A stretch of DNA of 64,000 nucleotides, taken from positions 50,761,019 through 50,825,018 of the forward strand of contig JAVGWX010000008.1 of assembly GCA_036924085.1 (NCBI GenBank), read 5' to 3'. The position numbers were made by a program, and so were the translations under genes. Shown here one piece after another: positions 16,036 through 64,000 of the stretch. Each line of letters opens with the position of its first letter. Within the stretch, counting starts at the first letter, position 1. The stretch comes from Ariolimax columbianus (taxonomy: Eukaryota; Mollusca; Gastropoda; Stylommatophora; Arionidae). The notes beneath the pieces were generated by a model. It had not been told where the DNA came from, did not search any database, and saw nothing but the letters and a program-made list of their open reading frames with translations.

Positions 16036-16209
16036 ATGGTTTCCATGAGATTAGTGTGACACAATAATTAGACCAATGCCACACTGAGATCATTTCGTAA
16101 GAGATGACTAACAGTGCGGTTCTACACATTAATAGCAGAAGTATCCTCAAATCATAGCGGTTGTACGATCTTTTATTCACAAGCCAAAATGGCATAGAGT
16201 AGTCTTCTT

Positions 16210-30839: not shown

Positions 30840-31030
30840 TACGATATCTACGCCTTTCTGTCCACATATCCGATTTCAGCTGGCTTTTTTGGGGGAACAG
30901 AGTTTGCCTTCCGACTGCAATCCCTATTCTCTAAGCCAGACTATACTAGTGCAGCCTGGGCCTCTGCTTGGAGGCGAAATGGGGTCTTGGTCAGCTCTGG
31001 TTTGTTGACCCTGGTGCAAGCAGCTATCTA
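30840..31030 (-). mobile_element. SINE family C, diverged
   Basis: TCCGATTTCAGCTGGC, TCCCTATTCTCTAAGCCAGA, GGTCTTGGTCAGCTCTGGTT and AGCTATCTAAGAGTCGCTGG follow the order of family C in reverse. Its head end merges into the 43-bp array. Confidence 0.6.
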
Positions 31031-35940: not shown

Positions 35941-35969
35941 CATTGTTAGGTGGTGTTAAGAGCAGCATA

Positions 35970-38053: not shown

Positions 38054-38223
38054 CTGTTTTACAATAAAAAAAAGGCCACATCATTTTCACTTTCAAAACA
38101 AGATCTATTTACTCTTCAGGATCAAATGTAATCAAAATTATGAAATCTGAGATACAGCACACAATTTGGATAAAGGTCTCATTGTCTTGAGACATGAGTT
38201 CTTCTTCTGAGATCGTTGCTCAT

Positions 38224-38720
38224 TTAGACTGGGACTCTCGATTCTTCAATACATTCAGCTGTCTTCTTCAGGGTTTCAATAGCGCAGTACAGTTTCTCCT
38301 CGAGGAGAGTTGGCATGGGCCACACCCTTCTCCTTAGATCTGTGTGCTGGCTTGAAATACATGTGTTGTTGTCATATAGGCTGGTGGTACCTATCTTGAA
38401 TTTGGTGTACAGATGATGTCTCATTCTGTTGTGGCCAATTCGGAGATGTGATATGATAACATGCGTCTTTTCTGGATAGCTGATAGTATCTGTCCTCTTT
38501 GGGGTGTTTTCCCTTCCATTTTACATTGTTTTGCACTTTGATTTTGACTTTTGCTTCTTCATAGTTGACCAGGTATTCTTCCTGTAACAGTTGTACTCCC
38601 TCTTTGGCTAGACTGTCAGCCTTCTTGTTTCCTTTGATGTTACATTGCGATGGTATCCACTGTATCACTGCTTTCTGAAAACCAGTGATATCTAGAAACT
38701 TCTTCTTCTTCTTCATCGTA
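38224..38720 (-). pseudogene. LINE Le RNase H fragment in a POLR1A intron
   Basis: Minus strand: AVIQWIPSQCNIKGNKKADS, LAKEGVQLL, EDRYYQLSRKDACYH (residues of the RNase H C-terminus and downstream linker), then in another frame MRHHLYTKFKIGTTSLY to 38224 with the Le tail. It abuts a second Le fragment at 38726. Confidence 0.8.
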
Positions 38721-38725
38721 CGCAG

Positions 38726-39091
38726 TCAGACACCAACCTTTATTTTTTCGAAAAAAGCAGCGGTCATCCTGAGGCTGTCGACACTGCCATAGAGCTTGTC
38801 TAGTGTTGCCACTGGTGATGGCCACATCTGCTCTCTCTGATCCTCGTATGTCGGGCAGTTTTGCAGCAGATGTTCAGCGGTCATTTTCCCGGTACCACAC
38901 AGGTATTTGTCAGTGCCACCTATCTTCAATTTGTTGAATAGGTGGTACCTCAGTCTATTGTGGCCAGTGCGAAGTCTGAAGACCACGACCTGCTCTCTTC
39001 TGTTCAACTGGTAATAGGCATCGTTTTTTGTGTAGCCAGTATGTTCGGTTTCCCATTTGGTCATGTAATATCTAGAAACAATACCCCACAT
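38726..39091 (-). pseudogene. LINE Le zinc-knuckle C-terminus in a POLR1A intron
   Basis: Open for 121 residues: YYQLNRREQVVVFRLRTGHN, HLFNKLKIGGTDKYLCGTG, AEHLLQNCPTYEDQREQMWP and a C-terminal VDSLRMTAAFFEKIKVGV. This is the best-preserved Le tail here. The C-G-T-G...H-x4-C arrangement is complete. Confidence 0.85.
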
Positions 39092-39129
39092 ATGATACAG
39101 AAATAAAAGAAAGATCTAGCAACAATACC

Positions 39130-39300
39130 CCATATATTCTTCTTCTTCAACTGCGTTCATTTTCAATCTCTCGCTACCAATCCCTAAACAGTGCTTTGCA
39201 AGTAGCAGGATGTAGTCCGGAGAACGGAATGCATTGTGTCGCTAGTTTACAGCTTCACTGTGATATTTGCACCTTTCGGTAGGACAAATTAGTCTTCGTC
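39130..39300 (-). mobile_element. SINE family C 3' part in a POLR1A intron
   Basis: CATTTTCAATCTCTCGCTAC, GTAGCAGGATGTAGTCCGGA, GTTTACAGCTTCACTGTGAT match family C in reverse. The flanking ACCCCATATNTGATACA-like sequence recurs several times between 39080 and 39450 as a loose local repeat. Confidence 0.75.
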
Positions 39301-39554
39301 AGCACCCCATATTTGATACATGAATAAAAGAAAGCTCTAGCAATAATACCCCACATATGATACACAAGTAAAAGAAAGCTCTAAAACCAATACCCCATAT
39401 ATGATAATATAACAAAGCTATAGAAACAGTACCCCATATTTGACACAATAATTAAACAAAACGTGACTAACTCATTTTCAAAAGGAACAGAAGAAGAAGA
39501 AATATATCAGACAAGTCCATACTCAACTATGACTGTCAATGACTGACATCTCAC

Positions 39555-39665
39555 CTTGATGATAACTCTGTTAGCTGCCTCAATCCCGTAGGTGTTGGCC
39601 ATCGTGTGTATACAGTTTGAGTACATTCTATTTAGGTCAAGGATTTCCGGGTGCTTAAACATTTC
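39555..39665 (-). CDS. POLR1A: RNA polymerase I largest subunit, penultimate coding exon
   Basis: 111 bp, exactly 37 codons, phase 0 at both ends. Acceptor ...CCTTCTAG and donor GTGAGA are in place. It reads [20 protein letters not shown] then [17 protein letters not shown]. The [21 protein letters not shown] stretch is the conserved segment preceding the VFGVYGI region of A190, and it joins in frame to EIQNVFGVYGI of the last exon across a 1.5-kb intron (38054-39554). The preceding exon is not found between 39666 and 64000, so it must lie beyond the window on the far side of the tandem array. Confidence 0.88.
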
Positions 39666-39910
39666 CTAGAAGGACAGAAGAGACATGCTTTCATTCTTCT
39701 TTGTCACTGAACTAATCGTACTGTTTACAACAAAATCATTTGATACCCCCATAAAAAAACTAAATTTAACACTCTTGAAATAACATCCTTGTCTTACAAA
39801 GACAACATCATTCTGTATTGGGCGTTATATACCATAACATTTACTAATAGCGGAGCACGAAAACTAGCAATAGGACGATGTGACACATGGCAGCCATGTC
39901 CCAGGTATGT

Positions 39911-40159
39911 TTGGTTTTGTTTTTTGTTTTTTTTATTTTTTCCTATCATATGACATTTTACCCATTGCTGGTGTAGTTGAGGGGTTTAGAAGGCTGAAGA
40001 CTACAGGCCGCTTCGCCACTGCTGTCGCCATGTCATGTGCTGGCTAATTTAACTTATTTCACCCCCAAAAGAAAAACAACATATGCCATACCAGGGATTC
40101 GAGCCCCTGCCCTCCTTGTCAGCAGGTAGGCCTTGAAATTATTTGGCCATGCACTCCTC
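39911..40159 (-). mobile_element. SINE family F with 11-bp TSD
   Basis: CCCAGGTATGT flanks it perfectly (39900-39910, 40160-40170). The minus strand starts GGAGGAGTGCATGGCCAAAT (A-box region), has a B box GGGCTCGAATCCC near 40095, and ends in a T-rich stretch on the + strand, the reverse of an A-rich tail. A single copy in the window. Confidence 0.85.
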
Positions 40160-40540
40160 CCCAGGTATGTATTTGAGAGAAAATCACAATCACATTTGGA
40201 GGACTTCACTGTGTATAATTCATATATAGCACTTCATTCCTCAAAACTTAAATTAACTGTAAAAATAGACAAATATATTTATTAAGCTCAAGGTTATAAA
40301 AGGCAGAGATGTTATAGCATTTGTATCTTACAGTAAAAGGACAGGGTTCAAGACTTGGTCACAGCACCTGTTTGGTCAGCTACAAAAAAAAGTAACTTAA
40401 CAAACAATGAAGTCTCTAAAACAACACACCCTGTGGTCTCTAATACTCCAACAATGAAGTCTCTAAAACAACACACCCTGTGGTCTCTAATAACTCCAAC
40501 AATGAAGTCTCTAAAACAACACACCCAGTGGTCTCTAATA

Positions 40541-40830
40541 ACTCCAACAATGAAGTCTCTAATAACTCCAACAATGAAGTCTCTAATAACTCCAACAATG
40601 AAGTCTCTAATAACTCCAACAATGAAGTCTCTAATAACTCCAACAATGAAGTCTCTAATAACTCCAACAATGAAGTCTCTAATAACTCCAACAATGAAGT
40701 CTCTAATAACTCCAATAATGAAGTCTCTAATAACTCCAACAATGAAGTCTCTAATAACTACAACAATGAAGTCTCTAATAATTCCAACAATGAAGTCTCT
40801 AATAACTCCAACAATGAAGTCTCTAAAACA
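40541..40830. repeat. Pure 24-bp X run
   Basis: About 12 consecutive X units with no Y or Z. Smaller X runs recur at about 40955-41075 and 41940-42010, each containing the same 2-nt deletion (GAAGTCTAATAAC at 41031 and 41966), so they are duplicates of one another. Confidence 0.95.
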
Positions 40831-41075
40831 ACACACCCTGTGGTCTCTAATAACTCCAACAATGAAGTCTCTAAAACAACACACCCAGTGGTCTCTAATA
40901 ACTCCAACAATGAAGTCTCTAAAACAACACATCCAGTGGTCTATAATAACTCCAACAATGAAGTCTCTAATAACTCCAACAATGAAGTCTCTAATAACTC
41001 CAACAATGAAGTCTCTAATAACTCCAACAATGAAGTCTAATAACTCCAACAATGAAGTCTCTAATAACTCCAACA

Positions 41076-44000
41076 ATGAAGTCTCTAAAACAACACACCC
41101 AGTGGTCTCTAATAACTCCAACAATGAAGTCTCTAAAACAACACACCCAGTGGTCTCTAATAACTCCAACAATGAAGTCTCTAAAACAACACACCCAGTG
41201 GTCTCTAATAACTCCAACAATGAAGTCTCTAAAACAACACACCCAGTGGTCTCTAATAACTCCAACAATGAAGTCTCTAAAACAACACACCCAGTGGTCT
41301 CTAATAACTCCAACAATGAAGTCTCTAAAACAACACACCCAGTGGTCTCTAATAACTCCAACAATGAAGTCTCTAAAACAACACACCCAGTGGTCTCTAA
41401 TAACTCCAACAATGAAGTCTCTAAAACAACACACCCAGTGGTCTCTAATAACTCCAACAATGAAGTCTCTAAAACAACACACCCAGTGGTCTCTAATAAC
41501 TCCAACAATGAAGTCTCTAAAACAACACACCCAGTGGTCTCTAATAACTCCAACAATGAAGTCTCTAAAACAACACACCCAGTGGTCTCTAATAACTCCA
41601 ACAATGAAGTCTCTAAAACAACACACCCAGTGGTCTCTAATAACTCCAACAATGAAGTCTCTAAAACAACACACCCAGTGGTCTCTAATAACTCCAACAA
41701 TGAAGTCTCTAAAACAACACACCCAGTGGTCTCTAATAACTCCAACAATGAAGTCTCTAAAACAACACACCCAGTGGTCTCTAATAACTCCAACAATGAA
41801 GTCTCTAAAACAACACACCCAGTGGTCTATAATAACTCCAACAATGAAGTCTCTAAAACAACACACCCAGTGGTCTCTAATAACTCCAACAATGAAGTCT
41901 CTAAAACAACACACCCAGTGGTCTATAATAACTCCAACAATGAAGTCTCTAATAACTCCAACAATGAAGTCTAATAACTCCAACAATGAAGTCTCTAATA
42001 ACTTCAACAATGAAGTCTCTAAAACAACACACCCAGTGGTTTCTAATAACTCCAACAATGAAGTCTCTAAAACAACACACCCAGTGGTCTCTAATAACTC
42101 CAACAATGAAGTCTCTAAAACAACACACCCAGTGGTCTCTAATAACTCCAACAATGAAGTCTCTAAAACAACACACCCAGTGGTCTCTAATAACTCCAAC
42201 AATGAAGTCTCTAAAACAACACACCCAGTGGTCTCTAATAACTCCAACAATGAAGTCTCTAAAACAACACACCCAGTGGTCTCTAATAACTCCAACAATG
42301 AAGTCTCTAAAACAACACACCCAGTGGTCTCTAATAACTCCAACAATGAAGTCTCTAAAACAACACACCCAGTGGTCTCTAATAACTCCAACAATGAAGT
42401 CTCTAAAACAACACACCCAGTGGTCTCTAATAACTCCAACAATGAAGTCTCTAAAACAACACACCCAGTGGTCTCTAATAACTCCAACAATGAAGTCTCT
42501 AAAACAACACACCCAGTGGTCTCTAATAACTCCAACAATGAAGTCTCTAAAACAACACACCCAGTGGTCTCTAATAACTCCAACAATGATGTCTCTAAAA
42601 CAACACACCCAGTGGTCTCTAATAACTCCAACAATGAAGTCTCTAAAACAACACACCCAGTGGTCTCTAATAACTCCAACAATGAAGTCTCTAAAACAAC
42701 ACACCCAGTGGTCTCTAATAACTCCAACAATGAAGTCTCTAAAACAACACACCCAGTGGTCTCTAATAACTCCAACAATGAAGTCTCTAAAACAACACAC
42801 CCAGTGGTCTCTAATAACTCCAACAATGAAGTCTCTAAAACAACACACCCAGTGGTCTCTAATAACTCCAACAATGAAGTCTCTAAAACAACACACCCAG
42901 TGGTCTCTAATAACTCCAACAATGAAGTCTCTAAAACAACACACCCAGTGGTCTCTAATAACTCCAACAATGAAGTCTCTAAAACAACACACCCAGTGGT
43001 CTCTAATAACTCCAACAATGAAGTCTCTAAAACAACACACCCAGTGGTCTCTAATAACTCCAACAATGAAGTCTCTAAAACAACACACCCAGTGGTCTCT
43101 AATAACTCCAACAATGAAGTCTCTAAAACAACACACCCAGTGGTCTCTAATAACTCCAACAATGAAGTCTCTAAAACAACACACCCAGTGGTCTCTAATA
43201 ACTCCAACAATGAAGTCTCTAAAACAACACACCCAGTGGTCTCTAATAACTCCAACAATGAAGTCTCTAAAACAACACACCCAGTGGTCTCTAATAACTC
43301 CAACAATGAAGTCTCTAAAACAACACACCCAGTGGTCTCTAATAACTCCAACAATGAAGTCTCTAAAACAACACACCCAGTGGTCTATAATAACTCCAAC
43401 AATGAAGTCTCTAAAACAACACACCCAGTGGTCTATAATAACTCCAACAATGAAGTCTCTAAAACAACACACCCAGTGGTCTATAATAACTCCAACAATG
43501 AAGTCTCTAAAACAACACACCCAGTGGTCTATAATAACTCCAACAATGAAGTCTCTAAAACAACACATCCAGTGGTCTCTAATAACTCCAACAATGAAGT
43601 CTCTAAAACAACACACCCAGTGGTCTCTAATAACTCCAACAATGAAGTCTCTAAAACAACACACCCAGTGGTCTCTAATAACTCCAACAATGAAGTCTCT
43701 AAAACAACACACCCAGTGGTCTATAATAACTCCAACAATGAAGTCTCTAAAACAACACACCCAGTGGTCTCTAATAACTCCAACAATGAAGTCTCTAAAA
43801 CAACACACCCAGTGGTCTCTAATAACTCCAACAATGAAGTCTCTAAAACAACACACCCAGTGGTCTCTAATAACTCCAACAATGAAGTCTCTAAAACAAC
43901 ACACCCAGTGGTCTCTAATAACTCCAACAATGAAGTCTCTAAAACAACACACCCAGTGGTCTCTAATAACTCCAACAATGAAGTCTCTAAAACAACACAC

Positions 44001-46019
44001 CCAGTGGTCTCTAATAACTCCAACAATGAAGTCTCTAAAACAACACACCCAGTGGTCTCTAATAACTCCAACAATGAAGTCTCTAAAACAACACACCCAG
44101 TGGTCTCTAATAACTCCAACAATGAAGTCTCTAAAACAACACACCCAGTGGTCTATAATAACTCCAACAATGAAGTCTCTAAAACAACACACCCAGTGGT
44201 CTATAATAACTCCAACAATGAAGTCTCTAAAACAACACACCCAGTGGTCTATAATAACTCCAACAATGAAGTCTCTAAAACAACACACCCAGTGGTCTAT
44301 AATAACTCCAACAATGAAGTCTCTAAAACAACACATCCAGTGGTCTCTAATAACTCCAACAATGAAGTCTCTAAAACAACACACCCAGTGGTCTCTAATA
44401 ACTCCAACAATGAAGTCTCTAAAACAACACACCCAGTGGTCTCTAATAACTCCAACAATGAAGTCTCTAAAACAACACACCCAGTGGTCTATAATAACTC
44501 CAACAATGAAGTCTCTAAAACAACACACCCAGTGGTCTCTAATAACTCCAACAATGAAGTCTCTAAAACAACACACCCAGTGGTCTCTAATAACTCCAAC
44601 AATGAAGTCTCTAAAACAACACACCCAGTGGTCTCTAATAACTCCAACAATGAAGTCTCTAAAACAACACACCCAGTGGTCTATAATAACTCCAACAATG
44701 AAGTCTCTAAAACAACACACCCAGTGGTCTATAATAACTCCAACAATGAAGTCTCTAAAACAACACACCCAGTGGTCTATAATAACTCCAACAATGAAGT
44801 CTCTAAAACAACACACCCAGTGGTCTATAATAACTCCAACAATGAAGTCTCTAAAACAACACATCCAGTGGTCTCTAATAACTCCAACAATGAAGTCTCT
44901 AAAACAACACACCCAGTGGTCTCTAATAACTCCAACAATGAAGTCTCTAAAACAACACACCCAGTGGTCTCTAATAACTCCAACAATGAAGTCTCTAAAA
45001 CAACACACCCAGTGGTCTATAATAACTCCAACAATGAAGTCTCTAAAACAACACACCCAGTGGTCTCTAATAACTCCAACAATGAAGTCTCTAAAACAAC
45101 ACACCCAGTGGTCTCTAATAACTCCAACAATGAAGTCTCTAAAACAACACACCCAGTGGTCTCTAATAACTCCAACAATGAAGTCTCTAAAACAACACAC
45201 CCAGTGGTCTCTAATAACTCCAACAATGAAGTCTCTAAAACAACACACCCAGTGGTCTCTAATAACTCCAACAATGAAGTCTCTAAAACAACACACCCAG
45301 TGGTCTATAATAACTCCAACAATGAAGTCTCTAAAACAACACACCCAGTGGTCTATAATAACTCCAACAATGAAGTCTCTAAAACAACATACACAGTGGT
45401 CTCTAATAACTCCAACAATGAAGTCTCTAAAACAACACACCCAGTGGTCTCTAATAACTCCAACAATGAAGTCTCTAAAACAACACACCCAGTGGTCTCT
45501 AATAACTCCAACAATGAAGTCTCTAAAACAACACACCCAGTGGTCTATAATAACTCCAACAATGAAGTCTCTAAAACAACACACCCAGTGGTCTCTAATA
45601 ACTCCAACAATGAAGTCTCTAAAACAACACACCCAGTGGTCTCTAATAACTCCAACAATGAAGTCTCTAAAACAACACACCCAGTGGTCTCTAATAACTC
45701 CAACAATGAAGTCTCTAAAACAACACACCCAGTGGTCTCTAATAACTCCAACAATGAAGTCTCTAAAACAACACACCCAGTGGTCTATAATAACTCCAAC
45801 AATGAAGTCTCTAAAACAACATACACAGTGGTCTCTAATAACTCCAACAATGAAGTCTCTAAAACAACACACCCAGTGGTCTATAATAACTCCAACAATG
45901 AAGTCTCTAAAACAACACACCCAGTGGTCTCTAATAACTCCAACAATGAAGTCTCTAAAACAACACACCCAGTGGTCTATAATAACTCCAACAATGAAGT
46001 CTCTAAAACAACATACACA
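41076..46019. repeat. 48-bp XY array, first block
   Basis: About 100 XY dimers. Runs of four consecutive dimers carrying TCTATAATAAC start near 43380, 44149 and 44677, spaced by 768 and 528 bp (16 and 11 dimers), showing intermediate-order duplication. Confidence 0.95.
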
Positions 46020-49000
46020 GTGGTCTCTAATAACTCCAACAATGAAGTCTCTAAAACAACACATCCAGTGGTCTCTAATAACTCCAACAATGAAGTCTCT
46101 AAAACAACACACCCAGTGGTCTCTAATAACTCCAACAATGAAGTCTCTAAAACAACACACCCAGTGGTCTCTAATAACTCCAACAATGAAGTCTCTAAAA
46201 CAACACACCCAGTGGTCTCTAATAACTCCAACAATGAAGTCTCTAAAACAACACACCCAGTGGTCTCTAATAACTCCAACAATGAAGTCTCTAAAACAAC
46301 ACACCCAGTGGTCTCTAATAACTCCAACAATGAAGTCTCTAAAACAACACACCCAGTGGTCTCTAATAACTCCAACAATGAAGTCTCTAAAACAACACAC
46401 CCAGTGGTCTCTAATAACTCCAACAATGAAGTCTCTAAAACAACACACCCAGTGGTCTCTAATAACTCCAACAATGAAGTCTCTAAAACAACACACCCAG
46501 TGGTCTCTAATAACTCCAACAATGAAGTCTCTAAAACAACACACCCAGTGGTCTATAATAACTCCAACAATGAAGTCTCTAAAACAACACACCCAGTGGT
46601 CTCTAATAACTCCAACAATGAAGTCTCTAAAACAACACACCCAGTGGTCTATAATAACTCCAACAATGAAGTCTCTAAAACAACACACCCAGTGGTCTCT
46701 AATAACTCCAACAATGAAGTCTCTAAAACAACACACCCAGTGGTCTCTAATAACTCCAACAATGAAGTCTCTAAAACAACACACACAGTGGTCTATAATA
46801 ACTCCAACAATGAAGTCTCTAAAACAACATACACAGTGGTCTATAATAACTCCAACAATGAAGTCTCTAAAACAACACACCCAGTGGTCTCTAATAACTC
46901 CAACAATGAAGTCTCTAAAACAACACACACAGTGGTCTATAATAACTCCAACAATGAAGTCTCTAAAACAACACACCCAGTGGTCTCTAATAACTCCAAC
47001 AATGAAGTCTCTAAAACAACACACCCAGTGGTCTCTAATAACTCCAACAATGAAGTCTCTAAAACAACACACCCAGTGGTCTCTAATAACTCCAACAATG
47101 AAGTCTCTAAAACAACACACCCAGTGGTCTATAATAACTCCAACAATGAAGTCTCTAAAACAACATACCCAGTGGTCTCTAATAACTCCAACAATGAAGT
47201 CTCTAAAACAACACACCCAGTGGTCTATAATAACTCCAACAATGAAGTCTCTAAAACAACACACCCAGTGGTCTCTAATAACTCCAACAATGAAGTCTCT
47301 AAAACAACACACCCAGTGGTCTATAATAACTCCAACAATGAAGTCTCTAAAACAACACACCCAGTGGTCTATAATAACTCCAACAATGAAGTCTCTAAAA
47401 CAACACACCCAGTGGTCTATAATAACTCCAACAATGAAGTCTCTAAAACAACACACCCAGTGGTCTCTAATAACTCCAACAATGAAGTCTCTAAAACAAC
47501 ACACCCAGTGGTCTCTAATAACTCCAACAATGAAGTCTCTAAAACAACACACCCAGTGGTCTATAATAACTCCAACAATGAAGTCTCTAAAACAACACAC
47601 CCAGTGGTCTATAATAACTCCAACAATGAAGTCTCTAAAACAACACACCCAGTGGTCTCTAATAACTCCAACAATGAAGTCTCTAATAACTCCAACAATG
47701 AAGTCTCTAAAACAACATACACAATAACATCTATAAAACTTTGAACCCTGTGGTCTCTAATAACTCCAACAATGAAGTCTCTAAAACAACACACCCAGTG
47801 GTCTATAATAACTCCAACAATGAAGTCTCTAAAACAACACACCCAGTGGTCTATAATAACTCCAACAATGAAGTCTCTAAAACAACACACCCAGTGGTCT
47901 ATAATAACTCCAACAATGAAGTCTCTAAAACAACACACCCAGTGGTCTCTAATAACTCCAACAATGAAGTCTCTAAAACAACACACCCAGTGGTCTCTAA
48001 TAACTCCAACAATGAAGTCTCTAAAACAACACACCCAGTGGTCTCTAATAACTCCAACAATGAAGTCTCTAAAACAACACACCCAGTGGTCTCTAATAAC
48101 TCCAACAATGAAGTCTCTAAAACAACACACCCAGTGGTCTCTAATAACTCCAACAATGAAGTCTCTAAAACAACACACCCAGTGGTCTCTAATAACTCCA
48201 ACAATGAAGTCTCTAAAACAACACACCCAGTGGTCTATAATAACTCCAACAATGAAGTCTCTAAAACAACACACCCAGTGGTCTATAATAACTCCAACAA
48301 TGAAGTCTCTAAAACAACACACCCAGTGGTCTCTAATAACTCCAACAATGAAGTCTCTAAAACAACACACCCAGTGGTCTCTAATAACTCCAACAATGAA
48401 GTCTCTAAAACAACACACCCAGTGGTCTCTAATAACTCCAACAATGAAGTCTCTAAAACAACATACACAGTGGTCTCTAATAACTCCAACAATGAAGTCT
48501 CTAAAACAACACACCCAGTGGTCTCTAATAACTCCAACAATGAAGTCTCTAAAACAACACACCCAGTGGTCTCTAATAACTCCAACAATGAAGTCTCTAA
48601 AACAACATACACAGTGGTCTCTAATAACTCCAACAATGAAGTCTCTAAAACAACACACCCAGTGGTCTCTAATAACTCCAACAATGAAGTCTCTAAAACA
48701 ACACACACAGTGGTCTCTAATAACTCCAACAATGAAGTCTCTAAAACAACACACCCAGTGGTCTCTAATAACTCCAACAATGAAGTCTCTAAAACAACAC
48801 ACCCAGTGGTCTCTAATAACTCCAACAATGAAGTCTCTAAAACAACACACCCAGTGGTCTCTAATAACTCCAACAATGAAGTCTCTAAAACAACACACCC
48901 AGTGGTCTCTAATAACTCCAACAATGAAGTCTCTAAAACAACACACCCAGTGGTCTATAATAACTCCAACAATGAAGTCTCTAAAACAACACACCCAGTG

Positions 49001-50261
49001 GTCTATAATAACTCCAACAATGAAGTCTCTAAAACAACACACCCAGTGGTCTCTAATAACTCCAACAATGAAGTCTCTAAAACAACATACACAATAACAT
49101 CTATAAAACTTTGAACCCTGTGGTCTCTAATAACTCCAACAATGAAGTCTCTAAAACAACACACCCAGTGGTCTCTAATAACTCCAACAATGAAGTCTCT
49201 AAAACAACACACCCAGTGGTCTCTAATAACTCCAACAATGAAGTCTCTAAAACAACACACCCAGTGGTCTATAATAACTCCAACAATGAAGTCTCTAAAA
49301 CAACACACCCAGTGGTCTATAATAACTCCAACAATGAAGTCTCTAAAACAACACACCCAGTGGTCTCTAATAACTCCAACAATGAAGTCTCTAAAACAAC
49401 ATACACAATAACATCTATAAAACTTTGAACCCTGTGGTCTCTAATAACTCCAACAATGAAGTCTCTAAAACAACACACCCTGTGGTCTCTAATAACTCCA
49501 ACAATGAAGTCTCTAAAACAACACACCCAGTGGTCTCTAATAACTCCAACAATGAAGTCTCTAAAACAACATACACAATAACATCTATAAAACTTTGAAC
49601 CCAGTGGTCTCTAATAACTCCAACAATGAAGTCTCTAAAACAACATACACAATAACATCTATAAAACTTTGAACCCAGTGGTCTCTAATAACTCCAACAA
49701 TGAAGTCTCTAAAACAACATACACAATAACATCTATAAAACTTTGAACCCAGTGGTCTCTAATAACTCCAACAATGAAGTCTCTAAAACAACATACACAA
49801 TAACATCTATAAAACTTTGAACCCTGTGGTCTCTAATAACTCCAACAATGAAGTCTCTAAAACAACACACCCAGTGGTCTCTAATAACTCCAACAATGAA
49901 GTCTCTAAAACAACACACCCAGTGGTCTATAATAACTCCAACAATGAAGTCTCTAAAACAACACACCCAGTGGTCTATAATAACTCCAACAATGAAGTCT
50001 CTAAAACAACACACCCAGTGGTCTCTAAAAACTCCAACAATGAAGTCTCTAAAACAACATACACAATAACATCTATAAAACTTTGAACCCTGTGGTCTCT
50101 AATAACTCCAACAATGAAGTCTCTAAAACAACACACCCTGTGGTCTCTAATAACTCCAACAATGAAGTCTCTAAAACAACACACCCAGTGGTCTCTAATA
50201 ACTCCAACAATGAAGTCTCTAAAACAACATACACAATAACATCTATAAAACTTTGAACCCA
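46020..50261. repeat. 4242-bp higher-order block, copy 1
   Basis: Mostly XY dimers with Z units in its right third. Landmarks (the ACATCC variant at 46061, the Z unit ending at 47739, the series of Z units at 49100-50250) recur 4242 bp later. Confidence 0.9.
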
Positions 50262-53200
50262 GTGGTCTCTAATAACTCCAACAATGAAGTCTCTAAAACA
50301 ACACATCCAGTGGTCTCTAATAACTCCAACAATGAAGTCTCTAAAACAACACACCCAGTGGTCTCTAATAACTCCAACAATGAAGTCTCTAAAACAACAC
50401 ACCCAGTGGTCTCTAATAACTCCAACAATGAAGTCTCTAAAACAACACACCCAGTGGTCTCTAATAACTCCAACAATGAAGTCTCTAAAACAACACACCC
50501 AGTGGTCTCTAATAACTCCAACAATGAAGTCTCTAAAACAACACACCCAGTGGTCTCTAATAACTCCAACAATGAAGTCTCTAAAACAACACACCCAGTG
50601 GTCTCTAATAACTCCAACAATGAAGTCTCTAAAACAACACACCCAGTGGTCTCTAATAACTCCAACAATGAAGTCTCTAAAACAACACACCCAGTGGTCT
50701 CTAATAACTCCAACAATGAAGTCTCTAAAACAACACACCCAGTGGTCTCTAATAACTCCAACAATGAAGTCTCTAAAACAACACACCCAGTGGTCTATAA
50801 TAACTCCAACAATGAAGTCTCTAAAACAACACACCCAGTGGTCTCTAATAACTCCAACAATGAAGTCTCTAAAACAACACACCCAGTGGTCTATAATAAC
50901 TCCAACAATGAAGTCTCTAAAACAACACACCCAGTGGTCTCTAATAACTCCAACAATGAAGTCTCTAAAACAACACACCCAGTGGTCTCTAATAACTCCA
51001 ACAATGAAGTCTCTAAAACAACACACACAGTGGTCTATAATAACTCCAACAATGAAGTCTCTAAAACAACATACACAGTGGTCTATAATAACTCCAACAA
51101 TGAAGTCTCTAAAACAACACACCCAGTGGTCTCTAATAACTCCAACAATGAAGTCTCTAAAACAACACACACAGTGGTCTATAATAACTCCAACAATGAA
51201 GTCTCTAAAACAACACACCCAGTGGTCTCTAATAACTCCAACAATGAAGTCTCTAAAACAACACACCCAGTGGTCTCTAATAACTCCAACAATGAAGTCT
51301 CTAAAACAACACACCCAGTGGTCTCTAATAACTCCAACAATGAAGTCTCTAAAACAACACACCCAGTGGTCTATAATAACTCCAACAATGAAGTCTCTAA
51401 AACAACATACCCAGTGGTCTCTAATAACTCCAACAATGAAGTCTCTAAAACAACACACCCAGTGGTCTATAATAACTCCAACAATGAAGTCTCTAAAACA
51501 ACACACCCAGTGGTCTCTAATAACTCCAACAATGAAGTCTCTAAAACAACACACCCAGTGGTCTATAATAACTCCAACAATGAAGTCTCTAAAACAACAC
51601 ACCCAGTGGTCTATAATAACTCCAACAATGAAGTCTCTAAAACAACACACCCAGTGGTCTATAATAACTCCAACAATGAAGTCTCTAAAACAACACACCC
51701 AGTGGTCTCTAATAACTCCAACAATGAAGTCTCTAAAACAACACACCCAGTGGTCTCTAATAACTCCAACAATGAAGTCTCTAAAACAACACACCCAGTG
51801 GTCTATAATAACTCCAACAATGAAGTCTCTAAAACAACACACCCAGTGGTCTATAATAACTCCAACAATGAAGTCTCTAAAACAACACACCCAGTGGTCT
51901 CTAATAACTCCAACAATGAAGTCTCTAATAACTCCAACAATGAAGTCTCTAAAACAACATACACAATAACATCTATAAAACTTTGAACCCTGTGGTCTCT
52001 AATAACTCCAACAATGAAGTCTCTAAAACAACACACCCAGTGGTCTATAATAACTCCAACAATGAAGTCTCTAAAACAACACACCCAGTGGTCTATAATA
52101 ACTCCAACAATGAAGTCTCTAAAACAACACACCCAGTGGTCTATAATAACTCCAACAATGAAGTCTCTAAAACAACACACCCAGTGGTCTCTAATAACTC
52201 CAACAATGAAGTCTCTAAAACAACACACCCAGTGGTCTCTAATAACTCCAACAATGAAGTCTCTAAAACAACACACCCAGTGGTCTCTAATAACTCCAAC
52301 AATGAAGTCTCTAAAACAACACACCCAGTGGTCTCTAATAACTCCAACAATGAAGTCTCTAAAACAACACACCCAGTGGTCTCTAATAACTCCAACAATG
52401 AAGTCTCTAAAACAACACACCCAGTGGTCTCTAATAACTCCAACAATGAAGTCTCTAAAACAACACACCCAGTGGTCTATAATAACTCCAACAATGAAGT
52501 CTCTAAAACAACACACCCAGTGGTCTATAATAACTCCAACAATGAAGTCTCTAAAACAACACACCCAGTGGTCTCTAATAACTCCAACAATGAAGTCTCT
52601 AAAACAACACACCCAGTGGTCTCTAATAACTCCAACAATGAAGTCTCTAAAACAACACACCCAGTGGTCTCTAATAACTCCAACAATGAAGTCTCTAAAA
52701 CAACATACACAGTGGTCTCTAATAACTCCAACAATGAAGTCTCTAAAACAACACACCCAGTGGTCTCTAATAACTCCAACAATGAAGTCTCTAAAACAAC
52801 ACACCCAGTGGTCTCTAATAACTCCAACAATGAAGTCTCTAAAACAACATACACAGTGGTCTCTAATAACTCCAACAATGAAGTCTCTAAAACAACACAC
52901 CCAGTGGTCTCTAATAACTCCAACAATGAAGTCTCTAAAACAACACACACAGTGGTCTCTAATAACTCCAACAATGAAGTCTCTAAAACAACACACCCAG
53001 TGGTCTCTAATAACTCCAACAATGAAGTCTCTAAAACAACACACCCAGTGGTCTCTAATAACTCCAACAATGAAGTCTCTAAAACAACACACCCAGTGGT
53101 CTCTAATAACTCCAACAATGAAGTCTCTAAAACAACACACCCAGTGGTCTCTAATAACTCCAACAATGAAGTCTCTAAAACAACACACCCAGTGGTCTAT

Positions 53201-54503
53201 AATAACTCCAACAATGAAGTCTCTAAAACAACACACCCAGTGGTCTATAATAACTCCAACAATGAAGTCTCTAAAACAACACACCCAGTGGTCTCTAATA
53301 ACTCCAACAATGAAGTCTCTAAAACAACATACACAATAACATCTATAAAACTTTGAACCCTGTGGTCTCTAATAACTCCAACAATGAAGTCTCTAAAACA
53401 ACACACCCAGTGGTCTCTAATAACTCCAACAATGAAGTCTCTAAAACAACACACCCAGTGGTCTCTAATAACTCCAACAATGAAGTCTCTAAAACAACAC
53501 ACCCAGTGGTCTATAATAACTCCAACAATGAAGTCTCTAAAACAACACACCCAGTGGTCTATAATAACTCCAACAATGAAGTCTCTAAAACAACACACCC
53601 AGTGGTCTCTAATAACTCCAACAATGAAGTCTCTAAAACAACATACACAATAACATCTATAAAACTTTGAACCCTGTGGTCTCTAATAACTCCAACAATG
53701 AAGTCTCTAAAACAACACACCCTGTGGTCTCTAATAACTCCAACAATGAAGTCTCTAAAACAACACACCCAGTGGTCTCTAATAACTCCAACAATGAAGT
53801 CTCTAAAACAACATACACAATAACATCTATAAAACTTTGAACCCAGTGGTCTCTAATAACTCCAACAATGAAGTCTCTAAAACAACATACACAATAACAT
53901 CTATAAAACTTTGAACCCAGTGGTCTCTAATAACTCCAACAATGAAGTCTCTAAAACAACATACACAATAACATCTATAAAACTTTGAACCCAGTGGTCT
54001 CTAATAACTCCAACAATGAAGTCTCTAAAACAACATACACAATAACATCTATAAAACTTTGAACCCTGTGGTCTCTAATAACTCCAACAATGAAGTCTCT
54101 AAAACAACACACCCAGTGGTCTCTAATAACTCCAACAATGAAGTCTCTAAAACAACACACCCAGTGGTCTATAATAACTCCAACAATGAAGTCTCTAAAA
54201 CAACACACCCAGTGGTCTATAATAACTCCAACAATGAAGTCTCTAAAACAACACACCCAGTGGTCTCTAAAAACTCCAACAATGAAGTCTCTAAAACAAC
54301 ATACACAATAACATCTATAAAACTTTGAACCCTGTGGTCTCTAATAACTCCAACAATGAAGTCTCTAAAACAACACACCCTGTGGTCTCTAATAACTCCA
54401 ACAATGAAGTCTCTAAAACAACACACCCAGTGGTCTCTAATAACTCCAACAATGAAGTCTCTAAAACAACATACACAATAACATCTATAAAACTTTGAAC
54501 CCA
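50262..54503. repeat. 4242-bp higher-order block, copy 2
   Basis: Directly follows copy 1. Every landmark I checked (ACATCC at 50303, Z at 51981, further Z units at 53335, 53640 and 54300) is at +4242 exactly, with the same variant series in between. Confidence 0.9.
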
Positions 54504-56265
54504 GTGGTCTCTAATAACTCCAACAATGAAGTCTCTAAAACAACACACCCAGTGGTCTCTAATAACTCCAACAATGAAGTCTCTAAAACAACACACACAA
54601 TAACATCTATAAAACTTTGAACCCAGTGGTCTCTAATAACTCCAACAATGAAGTCTCTAAAACAACACACACAATAACATCTATAAAACTTTGAACCCAG
54701 TGGTCTCTAATAACTCCAACAATGAAGTCTCTAAAACAACACACACAATAACATCTATAAAACTTTGAACCCTGTGGTCTCTAATAACTCCAACAATGAA
54801 GTCTCTAAAACAACACACACAATAACATCTATAAAACTTTGAACCCTGTGGTCTCTAATAACTCCAACAATGAAGTCTCTAAAACAACACACACAATAAC
54901 ATCTATAAAACTTTGAACCCTGTGGTCTCTAATAACTCCAACAATGAAGTCTCTAATAACTCCAACAATGAAGTCTCTAAAACAACACACACAATAACAT
55001 CTATAAAACTTTGAACCCTGTGGTCTCTAATAACTCCAACAATGAAGTCTCTAATAACTCCAACAATGAAGTCTCTAAAACAACACACACAATAACATCT
55101 ATAAAACTTTGAACCCTGTGGTCTCTAATAACTCCAACAATGAAGTCTCTAATAACTCCAACAATGAAGTCTCTAAAACAACACACACGATAACATCTAT
55201 AAAACTTTGAACCCTGTGGTCTCTAATAACTCCAACAATGAAGTCTCTAATAACTCCAACAATGAAGTCTCTAAAACAACACACACAATAACATCTATAA
55301 AACTTTGAACCCTGTGGTCTCTAATAACTCCAACAATGAAGTCTCTAATAACTCCAACAATGAAGTCTCTAAAACAACACACACAATAACATCTATAAAA
55401 CTTTGAACCCTGTGGTCTCTAATAACTCCAACAATGAAGTCTCTAATAACTCCAACAATGAAGTCTCTAAAACAACACACACAATAACATCTATAAAACT
55501 TTGAACCCTGTGGTCTCTAATAACTCCAACAATGAAGTCTCTAATAACTCCAACAATGAAGTCTCTAAAACAACACACACAATAACATCTATAAAACTTT
55601 GAACCCTGTGGTCTCTAATAACTCCAACAATGAAGTCTCTAATAACTCCAACAATGAAGTCTCTAAAACAACACACACAATAACATCTATAAAACTTTGA
55701 ACCCTGTGGTCTCTAATAACTCCAACAATGAAGTCTCTAAAACAACACACACAATAACATCTATAAAACTTTGAACCCTGTGGTCTCTAATAACTCCAAC
55801 AATGAAGTCTCTAATAACTCCAACAATGAAGTCTCTAAAACAACACACACAATAACATCTATAAAACTTTGAACCCTGTGGTCTCTAATAACTCCAACAA
55901 TGAAGTCTCTAATAACTCCAACAATGAAGTCTCTAAAACAACACACACAATAACATCTATAAAACTTTGAACCCTGTGGTCTCTAATAACTCCAACAATG
56001 AAGTCTCTAATAACTCCAACAATGAAGTCTCTAAAACAACACACACAATAACATCTATAAAACTTTGAACCCTGTGGTCTCTAAAAACTCCAACAATGAA
56101 GTCTCTAATAACTCCAACAATGAAGTCTCTAAAACAACACACACAATAACATCTATAAAACTTTGAACCCTGTGGTCTCTAATAACTCCAACAATGAAGT
56201 CTCTAATAACTCCAACAATGAAGTCTCTAAAACAACACACACAATAACATCTATAAAACTTTGAA
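54504..56265. repeat. 74/98-bp XZ and XXZ array
   Basis: XZ then homogeneous XXZ at a 98-bp period (for example 54903, 55001, 55099, 55197). One single XZ lies near 55710. Confidence 0.95.
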
Positions 56266-58310
56266 CCCTGTGGTCTCTAATAACTCCAACAATGAAGTCT
56301 CTAAAACAACATACCCAGTGGTCTATAATAACTCCAACAATGAAGTCTCTAAAACAACACACCCAGTGGTCTATAATAACTCCAACAATGAAGTCTCTAA
56401 AACAACACACCCAGTGGTCTCTAATAACTCCAACAATGAAGTCTCTAAAACAACACACCCAGTGGTCTCTAATAACTCCAACAATGAAGTCTCTAAAACA
56501 ACACACCCAGTGGTCTCTAATAACTCCAACAATGAAGTCTCTAAAACAACATACACAGTGGTCTCTAATAACTCCAACAATGAAGTCTCTAAAACAACAC
56601 ACCCAGTGGTCTCTAATAACTCCAACAATGAAGTCTCTAAAACAACACACCCAGTGGTCTCTAATAACTCCAACAATGAAGTCTCTAAAACAACATACAC
56701 AGTGGTCTCTAATAACTCCAACAATGAAGTCTCTAAAACAACACACCCAGTGGTCTCTAATAACTCCAACAATGAAGTCTCTAAAACAACACACACAGTG
56801 GTCTCTAATAACTCCAACAATGAAGTCTCTAAAACAACACACCCAGTGGTCTCTAATAACTCCAACAATGAAGTCTCTAAAACAACACACCCAGTGGTCT
56901 CTAATAACTCCAACAATGAAGTCTCTAAAACAACACACCCAGTGGTCTCTAATAACTCCAACAATGAAGTCTCTAAAACAACACACCCAGTGGTCTCTAA
57001 TAACTCCAACAATGAAGTCTCTAAAACAACACACCCAGTGGTCTATAATAACTCCAACAATGAAGTCTCTAAAACAACACACCCAGTGGTCTATAATAAC
57101 TCCAACAATGAAGTCTCTAAAACAACACACCCAGTGGTCTCTAATAACTCCAACAATGAAGTCTCTAAAACAACATACACAATAACATCTATAAAACTTT
57201 GAACCCTGTGGTCTCTAATAACTCCAACAATGAAGTCTCTAAAACAACACACCCAGTGGTCTCTAATAACTCCAACAATGAAGTCTCTAAAACAACACAC
57301 CCAGTGGTCTCTAATAACTCCAACAATGAAGTCTCTAAAACAACACACCCAGTGGTCTATAATAACTCCAACAATGAAGTCTCTAAAACAACACACCCAG
57401 TGGTCTATAATAACTCCAACAATGAAGTCTCTAAAACAACACACCCAGTGGTCTCTAATAACTCCAACAATGAAGTCTCTAAAACAACATACACAATAAC
57501 ATCTATAAAACTTTGAACCCTGTGGTCTCTAATAACTCCAACAATGAAGTCTCTAAAACAACACACCCTGTGGTCTCTAATAACTCCAACAATGAAGTCT
57601 CTAAAACAACACACCCAGTGGTCTCTAATAACTCCAACAATGAAGTCTCTAAAACAACATACACAATAACATCTATAAAACTTTGAACCCAGTGGTCTCT
57701 AATAACTCCAACAATGAAGTCTCTAAAACAACATACACAATAACATCTATAAAACTTTGAACCCAGTGGTCTCTAATAACTCCAACAATGAAGTCTCTAA
57801 AACAACATACACAATAACATCTATAAAACTTTGAACCCAGTGGTCTCTAATAACTCCAACAATGAAGTCTCTAAAACAACATACACAATAACATCTATAA
57901 AACTTTGAACCCTGTGGTCTCTAATAACTCCAACAATGAAGTCTCTAAAACAACACACCCAGTGGTCTCTAATAACTCCAACAATGAAGTCTCTAAAACA
58001 ACACACCCAGTGGTCTATAATAACTCCAACAATGAAGTCTCTAAAACAACACACCCAGCGGTCTCTAATAACTCCAACAATGAATTCTCTAAAACAACAT
58101 ACACAAAAACATCTATAAAACTTTGAACCCTGTGGTCTCTAATAACTCCAACAATGAAGTCTCTAAAACAACACACCCTGTGGTCTCTAATAACTCCAAC
58201 AATGAAGTCTCTAAAACAACACACCCAGTGGTCTCTAATAACTCCAACAATGAAGTCTCTAAAACAACATACACAATAACATCTATAAAACTTTGAACCC
58301 AGTGGTCTCT
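56266..58310. repeat. Third, shortened relative of the 4242-bp block
   Basis: XY dimers return. The variant order matches copy 2 at an offset of 3846 bp (57199 versus 53353), with one dimer missing near 58000. A 536-bp part (57905-58440) is repeated at 58441-58976, sharing the private variants CCAGCGG, GAATTCT and ACAAAAACATC. Confidence 0.85.
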
Positions 58311-61300
58311 AATAACTCCAACAATGAAGTCTCTAAAACAACACACACAATAACATCTATAAAACTTTGAACCCAGTGGTCTCTAATAACTCCAACAATG
58401 AAGTCTCTAAAACAACACACACAATAACATCTATAAAACTTTGAACCCTGTGGTCTCTAATAACTCCAACAATGAAGTCTCTAAAACAACACACCCAGTG
58501 GTCTCTAATAACTCCAACAATGAAGTCTCTAAAACAACACACCCAGTGGTCTATAATAACTCCAACAATGAAGTCTCTAAAACAACACACCCAGCGGTCT
58601 CTAATAACTCCAACAATGAATTCTCTAAAACAACATACACAAAAACATCTATAAAACTTTGAACCCTGTGGTCTCTAATAACTCCAACAATGAAGTCTCT
58701 AAAACAACACACCCTGTGGTCTCTAATAACTCCAACAATGAAGTCTCTAAAACAACACACCCAGTGGTCTCTAATAACTCCAACAATGAAGTCTCTAAAA
58801 CAACATACACAATAACATCTATAAAACTTTGAACCCAGTGGTCTCTAATAACTCCAACAATGAAGTCTCTAAAACAACACACACAATAACATCTATAAAA
58901 CTTTGAACCCAGTGGTCTCTAATAACTCCAACAATGAAGTCTCTAAAACAACACACACAATAACATCTATAAAACTTTGAACCCTGTGGTCTCTAATAAC
59001 TCCAACAATGAAGTCTCTAAAACAACACACACAATAACATCTATAAAACTTTGAACCCTGTGGTCTCTAATAACTCCAACAATGAAGTCTCTAAAACAAC
59101 ACACACAATAACATCTATAAAACTTTGAACCCTGTGGTCTCTAATAACTCCAACAATGAAGTCTCTAATAACTCCAACAATGAAGTCTCTAAAACNNNNN
59201 NNNNNNNNNNNNNNNNNNNNNNNNNNNNNNNNNNNNNNNNNNNNNNNNNNNNNNNNNNNNNNNNNNNNNNNNNNNNNNNNNNNNNNNNNNNNNNNATCTA
59301 TAAAACTTTGAACCCTGTGGTCTCTAATAACTCCAACAATGAAGTCTCTAATAACTCCAACAATGAAGTCTCTAAAACAACACACACAATAACATCTATA
59401 AAACTTTTGAACCCTGTGGTCTCTAATAACTCCAACAATGAAGTCTCTAAAACAACACACACAATAACATCTATAAAACTTTGAACCCTGTGGTCTCTAA
59501 TAACTCCAACAATGAAGTCTCTGAACTCCACAATGAAGTCTCTAAAACAACACACACAATAACATCTACTAAAACTTTGAACCCTGTGGTCTCTAATAAC
59601 TCCAACAATGAAGTCTCTAATAACTCCAACAATGAGTCTCTAAAACAACACACACAATAACATCTATAAAACTTTGAACCCTGTGGTCTCTAATAACTCC
59701 AACAATGAAGTCTCTAATAACTCCAACAATGAAGTCTCTAAAACAACACACACAATAACATCTATAAAACTTTGAACCCTGTGGTCTCTAATAACTCCAA
59801 CAATGAAGTCTCTAATAACTCCAACAATGAAGTCTCTAAAACAACACACACAATAACATCTATAAAACTTTGAACCCTGTGGTCTCTAATAACTCCAACA
59901 ATGAAGTCTCTAATAACTCCAACAATGAAGTCTCTAAAACAACACACACAATAACATCTATAAAACTTTGAACCCTGTGGTCTCTAATAACTCCAACAAT
60001 GAAGTCTCTAAAACAACAAACACAATAACATCTATAAAACTTTGAACCCTGTGGTCTCTAATAACTCCAACAATGAAGTCTCTAAAACAACAACACAATA
60101 ACATCTATAAAACTTTGAACCCTGTGGTCTCTAATAACTCCAACAATGAAGTCTCTAAAACAACATACACAATAACATCTATAAAACTTTGAACCCTGTG
60201 GTCTCTAATAACTCCAACAATGAAGTCTCTAAAACAACATACACAATAACATCTATAAAACTTTGAACCCTGTGGTCTCTAATAACTCCAACAATGAAGT
60301 CTCTAAAACAACATACACAATAACATCTATAAAACTTTGAACCCTGTGGTCTCTAATAACTCCAACAATGAAGTCTCTAAAACAACATACACAATAACAT
60401 CTATAAAACTTTGAACCCTGTGGTCTCTAATAACTCCAACAATGAAGTCTCTAAAACAACATACACAATAACATCTATAAAACTTTGAACCCTGTGGTCT
60501 CTAATAACTCCAACAATGAAGTCTCTAAAACAACACACACAATAACATCTATAAAACTTTGAACCCTGTGGTCTCTAATAACTCCAACAATGAAGTCTCT
60601 AAAACAACACACACAATAACATCTATAAAACTTTGAACCCTGTGGTCTCTAATAACTCCAACAATGAAGTCTCTAAAACAACACACACAATAACATCTAT
60701 AAAACTTTGAACCCTGTGGTCTCTAATAACTCCAACAATGAAGTCTCTAAAACAACACACACAATAACATCTATAAAACTTTGAACCCTGTGGTCTCTAA
60801 TAACTCCAACAATGAAGTCTCTAAAACAACACACACAATAACATCTATAAAACTTTGAACCCTGTGGTCTCTAATAACTCCAACAATGAAGTCTCTAAAA
60901 CAACATACACAATAACATCTATAAAACTTTGAACCCTGTGGTCTCTAATAACTCCAACAATGAAGTCTCTAAAACAACACACACAATAACATCTATAAAA
61001 CTTTGAACCCTGTGGTCTCTAATAACTCCAACAATGAAGTCTCTAAAACAACACACACAATAACATCTATAAAACTTTGAACCCTGTGGTCTCTAATAAC
61101 TCCAACAATGAAGTCTCTAAAACAACACACACAATAACATCTATAAAACTTTGAACCCTGTGGTCTCTAATAACTCCAACAATGAAGTCTCTAATAACTC
61201 CAACAATGAAGTCTCTAAAACAACACACACAATAACATCTATAAAACTTTGAACCCTGTGGTCTCTAATAACTCCAACAATGAAGTCTCTAAAACAACAC

Positions 61301-64000
61301 ACACAATAACATCTATAAAACTTTGAACCCTGTGGTCTCTAATAACTCCAACAATGAAGTCTCTAATAACTCCAACAATGAAGTCTCTAAAACAACACAC
61401 ACAATAACATCTATAAAACTTTGAACCCTGTGGTCTCTAATAACTCCAACAATGAAGTCTCTAAAACAACACACACAATAACATCTATAAAACTTTGAAC
61501 CCTGTGGTCTCTAATAACTCCAACAATGAAGTCTCTAATAACTCCAACAATGAAGTCTCTAAAACAACACACACAATAACATCTATAAAACTTTGAACCC
61601 TGTGGTCTCTAATAACTCCAACAATGAAGTCTCTAAAACAACACACACAATAACATCTATAAAACTTTGAACCCTGTGGTCTCTAATAACTCCAACAATG
61701 AAGTCTCTAAAACAACACACACAATAACATCTATAAAACTTTGAACCCTGTGGTCTCTAATAACTCCAACAATGAAGTCTCTAATAACTCCAACAATGAA
61801 GTCTCTAAAACAACACACACAATAACATCTATAAAACTTTGAACCCTGTGGTCTCTAATAACTCCAACAATGAAGTCTCTAATAACTCCAACAATGAAGT
61901 CTCTAAAACAACACACACAATAACATCTATAAAACTTTGAACCCTGTGGTCTCTAATAACTCCAACAATGAAGTCTCTAAAACAACACACACAATAACAT
62001 CTATAAAACTTTGAACCCTGTGGTCTCTAATAACTCCAACAATGAAGTCTCTAATAACTCCAACAATGAAGTCTCTAAAACAACACACACAATAACATCT
62101 ATAAAACTTTGAACCCTGTGGTCTCTAATAACTCCAACAATGAAGTCTCTAAAACAACACACACAATAACATCTATAAAACTTTGAACCCTGTGGTCTCT
62201 AATAACTCCAACAATGAAGTCTCTAATAACTCCAACAATGAAGTCTCTAAAACAACACACACAATAACATCTATAAAACTTTGAACCCTGTGGTCTCTAA
62301 TAACTCCAACAATGAAGTCTCTAATAACTCCAACAATGAAGTCTCTAAAACAACACACACAATAACATCTATAAAACTTTGAACCCTGTGGTCTCTAATA
62401 ACTCCAACAATGAAGTCTCTAAAACAACACACACAATAACATCTATAAAACTTTGAACCCTGTGGTCTCTAATAACTCCAACAATGAAGTCTCTAATAAC
62501 TCCAACAATGAAGTCTCTAAAACAACACACACAATAACATCTATAAAACTTTGAACCCTGTGGTCTCTAATAACTCCAACAATGAAGTCTCTAAAACAAC
62601 ACACACAATAACATCTATAAAACTTTGAACCCTGTGGTCTCTAATAACTCCAACAATGAAGTCTCTAATAACTCCAACAATGAAGTCTCTAAAACAACAC
62701 ACACAATAACATCTATAAAACTTTGAACCCTGTGGTCTCTAATAACTCCAACAATGAAGTCTCTAAAACAACACACACAATAACATCTATAAAACTTTGA
62801 ACCCTGTGGTCTCTAATAACTCCAACAATGAAGTCTCTAATAACTCCAACAATGAAGTCTCTAAAACAACACACACAATAACATCTATAAAACTTTGAAC
62901 CCTGTGGTCTCTAATAACTCCAACAATGAAGTCTCTAATAACTCCAACAATGAAGTCTCTAAAACAACACACACAATAACATCTATAAAACTTTGAACCC
63001 TGTGGTCTCTAATAACTCCAACAATGAAGTCTCTAATAACTCCAACAATGAAGTCTCTAAAACAACACACACAATAACATCTATAAAACTTTGAACCCTG
63101 TGGTCTCTAATAACTCCAACAATGAAGTCTCTAATAACTCCAACAATGAAGTCTCTAAAACAACACACACAATAACATCTATAAAACTTTGAACCCTGTG
63201 GTCTCTAATAACTCCAACAATGAAGTCTCTAAAACAACACACACAATAACATCTATAAAACTTTGAACCCTGTGGTCTCTAATAACTCCAACAATGAAGT
63301 CTCTAATAACTCCAACAATGAAGTCTCTAAAACAACACACACAATAACATCTATAAAACTTTGAACCCTGTGGTCTCTAATAACTCCAACAATGAAGTCT
63401 CTAAAACAACACACACAATAACATCTATAAAACTTTGAACCCTGTGGTCTCTAATAACTCCAACAATGAAGTCTCTAATAACTCCAACAATGAAGTCTCT
63501 AAAACAACACACACAATAACATCTATAAAACTTTGAACCCTGTGGTCTCTAATAACTCCAACAATGAAGTCTCTAATAACTCCAACAATGAAGTCTCTAA
63601 AACAACACACACAATAACATCTATAAAACTTTGAACCCTGTGGTCTCTAATAACTCCAACAATGAAGTCTCTAAAACAACACACACAATAACATCTATAA
63701 AACTTTGAACCCTGTGGTCTCTAATAACTCCAACAATGAAGTCTCTAATAACTCCAACAATGAAGTCTCTAAAACAACACACACAATAACATCTATAAAA
63801 CTTTGAACCCTGTGGTCTCTAATAACTCCAACAATGAAGTCTCTAAAACAACACACACAATAACATCTATAAAACTTTGAACCCTGTGGTCTCTAATAAC
63901 TCCAACAATGAAGTCTCTAATAACTCCAACAATGAAGTCTCTAAAACAACACACACAATAACATCTATAAAACTTTGAACCCTGTGGTCTCTAATAACTC
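58311..64000. repeat. Terminal XZ/XXZ array, unit lengths alternate 74 and 98
   Basis: From 59650 the array is nearly uniform. 60000-61150 is mainly XZ (74 bp), and after 61150 XZ and XXZ alternate, often giving a 172-bp dimer. It continues past the window end. Confidence 0.95.
59196..59295. other. Assembly gap, 100 N
   Basis: Exactly 100 N inside the array, the usual placeholder for a gap of unknown size, so true array length is unknown. Sequence just right of it (59400-59640) has irregular 1-3-nt indels not seen elsewhere. Confidence 0.99.

What the first reader, a model, noticed from the sequence alone, without database searches (positions are those of the whole stretch)
39555..64000. More than 23.5-kb minisatellite apparently inside an intron of POLR1A
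The penultimate POLR1A exon (39555-39665) is intact with a proper acceptor, so an upstream exon must exist. None is found between 39666 and the window end, and almost all of that space is tandem array. If the gene is complete, the essential Pol I large-subunit pre-mRNA must transcribe and splice across a very large simple array.
Basis: partly seen in the sequence, partly recalled or inferred. Interest (0 to 1): 0.8.

Follow-up and report, generated by a model that had tools for sequence, protein, structure and literature searches.

The report
Large minisatellite beside snail POLR1A exons
In what looks like a land-snail genome, the last two coding exons of the gene for the main subunit of RNA polymerase I are followed, on the side where the rest of the gene should lie, by a very long array of 24-base repeats, so the array probably sits in an intron; similar arrays are known in introns of other animals.

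Summary
The array and the two POLR1A coding exons are real. The minus strand encodes the last 133 residues of Pol I's largest subunit (human POLR1A 151 bits; 89% identical to the snail Bradybaena similaris) with canonical splice sites. Upstream of exon 39555-39665 lie 738 bases of non-array sequence, then array from 40404 to the window end, built from related 24-bp and 50-bp units. No other POLR1A exon was found in the window. Most likely this is a passive intronic minisatellite in a working gene. A detached gene fragment or wrong join is not excluded, because the window's genome could not be searched. Intronic minisatellites of this size are in print (CACNA1C TRACT, 30-bp unit, 3-30+ kb); Drosophila Y-gene introns are far larger. 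Tests for special features of the array (poly(A) and splice silence, RNA folding) gave nothing beyond shuffled-unit controls. A new member of a known kind.

The parts
37763..38053 (-). last coding exon of POLR1A (96 codons + stop)
   Evidence: 89% aa identity to Bradybaena similaris over this exon
38054..39554 (-). intron between the last two coding exons of POLR1A, 1,501 bp, GT...AG; carries ORF fragments that resemble retrotransposon-derived sequence (my reading, no Pfam hit)
39555..39665 (-). penultimate coding exon of POLR1A (37 codons)
39666..40403 (-). non-array 3' part of the presumed upstream intron, no POLR1A exon found
40404..59195 (.). minisatellite array, part contiguous with the exon (18,792 bp): mainly alternating 24-bp monomers A and B
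46018..54547 (.). exact tandem duplication inside the array, 4,288 bp at offset 4,242
56313..58058 (.). third copy, 1,746 bp exact, of 48225-49970 and 52467-54212
59196..59295 (.). assembly gap, 100 N, inside the array
59296..64000 (.). array beyond the gap (4,705 bp): A units and 50-bp D-type units, no exact B unit; runs off the window

Best explanation
This is the 3' end of a working POLR1A gene of a stylommatophoran land snail, with a minisatellite array of at least 18.8 kb (probably more than 23 kb) in the intron before the penultimate coding exon. The array grew from one ~24-bp ancestral unit: first divergence into related monomers (A, B and the 26+24-bp composite D), then repeated unequal exchange or slippage-like copying of blocks, including a 4.2-kb block recently. 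It is most likely a passive passenger that is transcribed as intron and removed by ordinary splicing to the strong acceptor before 39665. Shown: the exons, their splice-site sequences, the array, its unit types, its block copies in the assembly and the gap. Inferred: that upstream exons lie beyond 64000, that the gene is expressed, the host group, and the growth mechanism.
For: 32 of 32 columns that are at least 95% conserved among the 120 listed homologues carry the consensus residue, and 2 of 133 residues are unseen there. The array is joined to the exon for 18.8 kb without N. Units are related: B and D's second half 16 of 24 identical (0 of 20,000 shuffles), A and B 13 of 24 (p 0.007). Block copies. 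No AATAAA/ATTAAA occurs in the array on either strand, and its best sense-strand sites (acceptor 6.5 bits, donor 7.7) lie below the real ones (acceptors 12.2 and 6.8, donor 10.6).
Against: No upstream exon was seen, and a gap lies inside the array. A recent, undecayed gene fragment would look the same: of the 14 differences from Bradybaena 1 falls in the 32 conserved columns, where the window has the consensus and Bradybaena not, which by itself is no significant sign of constraint (about 0.10 for at most one, from the 0.017 for none). Lack of poly(A) signals is weak evidence: 266 of 400 unit-shuffled arrays also lack them. The best array acceptor is only just below the weaker real one, and weak donor-like sites are more frequent in the array than outside it (11.4 against 6.6-7.5 per kb).
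Confidence: 0.72

Rival explanations
1. The two exons are a detached 3' fragment (recent segmental-duplication pseudogene or translocation) or a contig misjoin next to a free-standing minisatellite; the real gene is elsewhere.
For: No upstream exon found in the window and an N gap in the array; the genome could not be searched; the constraint test on differences from Bradybaena is not significant.
Against: Intact exons and splice sites, consensus residue in 32 of 32 conserved columns, no gap between exon and array.
Confidence: 0.19
2. Not exclusive with the others: the array is real but its assembled length is not. The exact 4,242-bp duplication and the 100-N join are assembly products, so the true array may be shorter or much longer.
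For: 4,288 of 4,288 bases identical at offset 4,242 and a third exact 1,746-bp copy; 100 N, often used for gaps of unknown size (recalled).
Against: Exact block copies are also what recent unequal exchange gives; the sequences that flank the two copies differ.
Confidence: 0.3
3. The array has a role: its G/U-rich, wobble-paired sense transcript or its length tunes POLR1A expression, much as long CACNA1C alleles go with lower expression in fibroblasts and testis (abstract of PMC13131567).
For: Strand asymmetry (sense strand T 41%, G 27%, A 22.5%, C 9.5%); sense RNA folds far better than antisense (mean -80.8 against -17.9 kcal/mol over 58 pieces of 288 nt; 100 non-array minus-strand pieces -65.0).
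Against: Against arrays tiled from shuffled units the sense fold is unremarkable (12 of 200 as low for AB, 15 of 200 for AAD). No conservation or expression data.
Confidence: 0.07

Closest known systems
Human CACNA1C intronic 30-bp VNTR (TRACT), preprint PMC13131567 (abstract and the section on perfect repeat tracts read)
   Same: Intronic minisatellite of similar unit length and total length (3-30+ kb, long alleles ~24 kb), with variant monomers and perfect tracts.
   Different: Unrelated sequence and host gene; there the intronic position, length variation between people and expression associations are known, here none of these.
Satellite-filled giant introns of Drosophila Y genes kl-3 and kl-5, PMC6508621 (passages read)
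   Same: A gene transcribed through tandem repeats in an intron.
   Different: Megabases of simple satellite, Y-linked and expressed in spermatogenesis; here tens of kb of a 24-50-bp unit beside a housekeeping gene.
POLR1A (RPA1) of heterobranch snails, e.g. Bradybaena similaris BsWGS_02655
   Same: 89% identity over the 133 residues encoded here.
   Different: Only the last 133 of about 1,724 residues are in the window; intron structure of the relatives was not seen.

Membership tests
POLR1A (Pol I largest subunit) | Best match is Pol I RPA1, not RPB1 or RPC1 | tested here: met
   151 bits RPA1, 77 RPB1, 55 RPC1; PF04998, 70 bits
POLR1A (Pol I largest subunit) | Complete gene with all domains | tested here: inconclusive
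   only residues ~1588-1724 in the window; the rest may lie beyond 64000
Minisatellite array | Head-to-tail units of roughly 6-100 bp (range recalled) | tested here: met
   24-bp and 50-bp units, 857 tokens of 32 kinds (one of them the token that holds the gap)
Intronic VNTR | Exons of one gene on both sides | tested here: inconclusive
   exon on one side only; the array runs off the window
Intronic VNTR | Length differs between individuals | not testable with these tools
   one assembly only
Satellite giant intron (Drosophila Y type) | Megabase-scale simple satellite | tested here: not met
   unit is 24-50 bp and 23.5 kb are seen, though the full length is unknown

The most novel reading that the evidence does not exclude
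A housekeeping gene, the largest subunit of Pol I, must be transcribed in every cell through an unusually large and still fast-growing array whose sense transcript lacks poly(A) signals and strong splice sites; its length acts as a tunable brake on Pol I output that varies among snails.
Probability: 0.06. Interest if true: 0.6.

Novelty: new member of a known kind. Interest (0 to 1): 0.3.

Why it matters
If the intron is confirmed, it is a case outside mammals and flies of a housekeeping gene that carries a minisatellite intron of about 20 kb or more. It also shows how such arrays trouble assemblies (a gap inside the array, exact block duplication) and could make gene annotation lose most of a gene. 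As a phenomenon it has close precedents, so its weight is as an example, not as a new kind.

Tried and rejected
RNA structure: the sense strand gave z -7.1 and -3.6 against whole-sequence shuffles. That control is wrong for tandem repeats; against arrays tiled from shuffled units it falls to z -1.6 for both unit types, so no special structure is claimed. The antisense strand folds less well than most of its shuffled-unit arrays (186 of 200 and 200 of 200 as low or lower); not followed further.

Poly(A) and splice silence of the array: true, but 266 of 400 arrays with base-shuffled units also lack poly(A) signals on the sense strand and 195 of 400 also lack donors of 8 bits or more, so it is not evidence of selection.

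Constraint on the exons: I first wrote that all 14 differences from Bradybaena avoid the 32 conserved columns (0.017). The check found 1 of 14 in them, so that claim is dropped and the confidence of the intron reading lowered from 0.74 to 0.72.

Origin of the unit: neither A, B nor D occurs in 1-40400 with up to 6 mismatches. No Rfam match at gathering score in the window. The 24-bp A unit has no exact match in the viral contigs. A 450-aa reading frame through the array had no protein relative at E <= 0.001. Long reading frames in the array (up to 2,236 aa) are not taken as genes.

Neighbour-gene order test: the profilin-like frame at 2335-2748 (-) had one relative, without a name, so gene order against Bradybaena could not be checked.

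Papers, listings only: 'POLR1A / intron / minisatellite', at least two of three (20 of 789 listed), 'land snail / genome assembly / tandem repeats / intron' (9 listed of 10), 'Bradybaena similaris / genome' (20 of 20), 'intronic / satellite array / essential gene' (2 of 2) and 'minisatellite / intron / gastropod' (7 of 7) listed no title about this array. Of PMC12042801 I saw passages; its main text holds 'tandem', 'satellite' and 'intron' 0 times. The two precedents come (20 of 33 listed; 9 of 9).

Full report
What is there. On the minus strand, 39665-39555 and 38053-37763 encode 37 + 96 codons that end in a stop codon. The joined peptide matches human POLR1A at 151 bits, the two yeast Pol I subunits listed next at 134 and 117, RPB1 at 77 and RPC1 at 55, and Pfam RNA_pol_Rpb1_5 at 70 bits. 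A search with the last exon gave 158 proteins at E <= 0.001, of which 120 were listed. The best is from the land snail Bradybaena similaris: 89% over the 133 residues, against 80% for Lymnaea and for Biomphalaria. From this I infer a stylommatophoran host (Bradybaena's order); the species is not known.

Is the gene fragment under constraint? All 32 columns that are at least 95% conserved among the 120 listed homologues carry the consensus residue, and 2 of 133 residues are unseen in them. Of the 14 differences from Bradybaena, 1 falls in those columns, and there the window has the consensus. That distribution alone is not significant (none would be 0.017; at most one is about 0.10). Splice sites are canonical and score 12.2 and 6.8 bits for the two acceptors and 10.6 for the donor with a rough matrix. 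This argues against an old pseudogene, not against a recent fragment.

Is the rest of the gene here? tblastn with 27 of the 120 relatives (output cut, rows read as far as part of P0013) placed only residues ~1588-1724 (Bradybaena numbering). Apart from these two exons the lowest E seen was 0.076. Some alignments ran past 39665 into the intron (for example P0003 and P0006), but an in-frame TAG lies directly before the exon (sequence), so I take these as over-extension.

The array. From 40404 to 64000 the sequence is split at its repeat anchor into 857 tokens of 32 kinds, one of them the token that holds the gap. The commonest are a 24-bp A (363), a 24-bp B (253), a one-base variant of A (78) and a 50-bp D (65). 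96.7% of the called bases lie in a few exact token forms. B and the second half of D share 16 of 24 bases (0 of 20,000 shuffles), A and B 13 of 24 (p 0.007), so the units probably share an ancestor. None occurs in 1-40400 with up to 6 mismatches.

There is a run of 100 N at 59196-59295, inside the array. The part joined to the exon is 18,792 bp and holds A, B and D. The 4,705 bp beyond the gap hold A and D-type units but no exact B; the last exact B before the gap starts at 58743, so the make-up on the two sides of the gap is alike. The join is plausible but not proved. Inside the first part, 46018-50305 is repeated exactly at 50260-54547, and 1,746 bp of it a third time at 56313-58058. With the observed mix of 48-mers such a match is not expected by composition (rough estimate 10^-40). 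It is either a recent block duplication or an assembly product; the flanks of the two copies differ.

How it most likely works. The simplest account is an intron that gained a minisatellite, which grew by slippage and unequal exchange. The transcript meets no AATAAA/ATTAAA in the array, and the best array sites (acceptor 6.5, donor 7.7 bits) lie below the real ones, though the acceptor only just below the weaker real one, so ordinary splicing into 39665 should suffice. These absences are common for short units: 266 of 400 shuffled-unit arrays lack poly(A) signals and 195 of 400 lack donors of 8 bits or more. The sense RNA's apparent extreme folding disappears with a proper tandem control.

Against known things. 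The human CACNA1C intronic 30-bp repeat spans 3-30+ kb, with long alleles of about 24 kb (preprint PMC13131567, abstract and one section). Drosophila kl-3 and kl-5 introns hold megabases of satellite (PMC6508621, passages). Size and type are therefore not new; the host gene and lineage differ from these. What stays open is whether upstream exons lie beyond the array. That needs the rest of the assembly, which could not be reached.

Noticed in passing
7491-8424, 9088-9271, 15717-16042, 21772-22898, 27094-27685, 28438-29025, 31028-31539, 33197-33639: Eight further minisatellite arrays with seven different units (37-75 bp), the longest 1,127 bp, all on the 3' side of POLR1A (three rows of about two copies or simple GT-rich sequence left out). 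The large array is about 17-21 times longer than the longest of them.
   Followed up: no
7347-8539 and 8944-9386: The 75-bp array occurs twice with near-identical flanks (shared reading-frame ends on both sides): a duplicated segment whose array differs in copy number.
   Followed up: no
2335-2748 (-): Profilin-like reading frame (PF00235, 37 bits) with one unnamed 133-aa relative at 80% identity.
   Followed up: partly
4800-5579 (-) and 12000-14090 (-): Remains of two retrotransposons (reverse transcriptase PF00078 in both; endonuclease PF14529 in the second); neighbouring frames 5467-6144, 11739-11999 and 14078-14470 had no Pfam hit.
   Followed up: partly
16508-17074 (+): Reading frame with a DUF6451 match (PF20049, 39 bits).
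   Followed up: no
38224-39115 (-): The last POLR1A intron carries ORF fragments that share a motif (LRTGHNR-like) with 35655-35945; probably retrotransposon remains, but no Pfam hit.
   Followed up: partly
41034-47744 (+) and others: Open frames of up to 2,236 aa run through the array, which I put down to 24- and 48-bp units being multiples of 3 without stops in some frames; gene finders could annotate these wrongly.
   Followed up: partly
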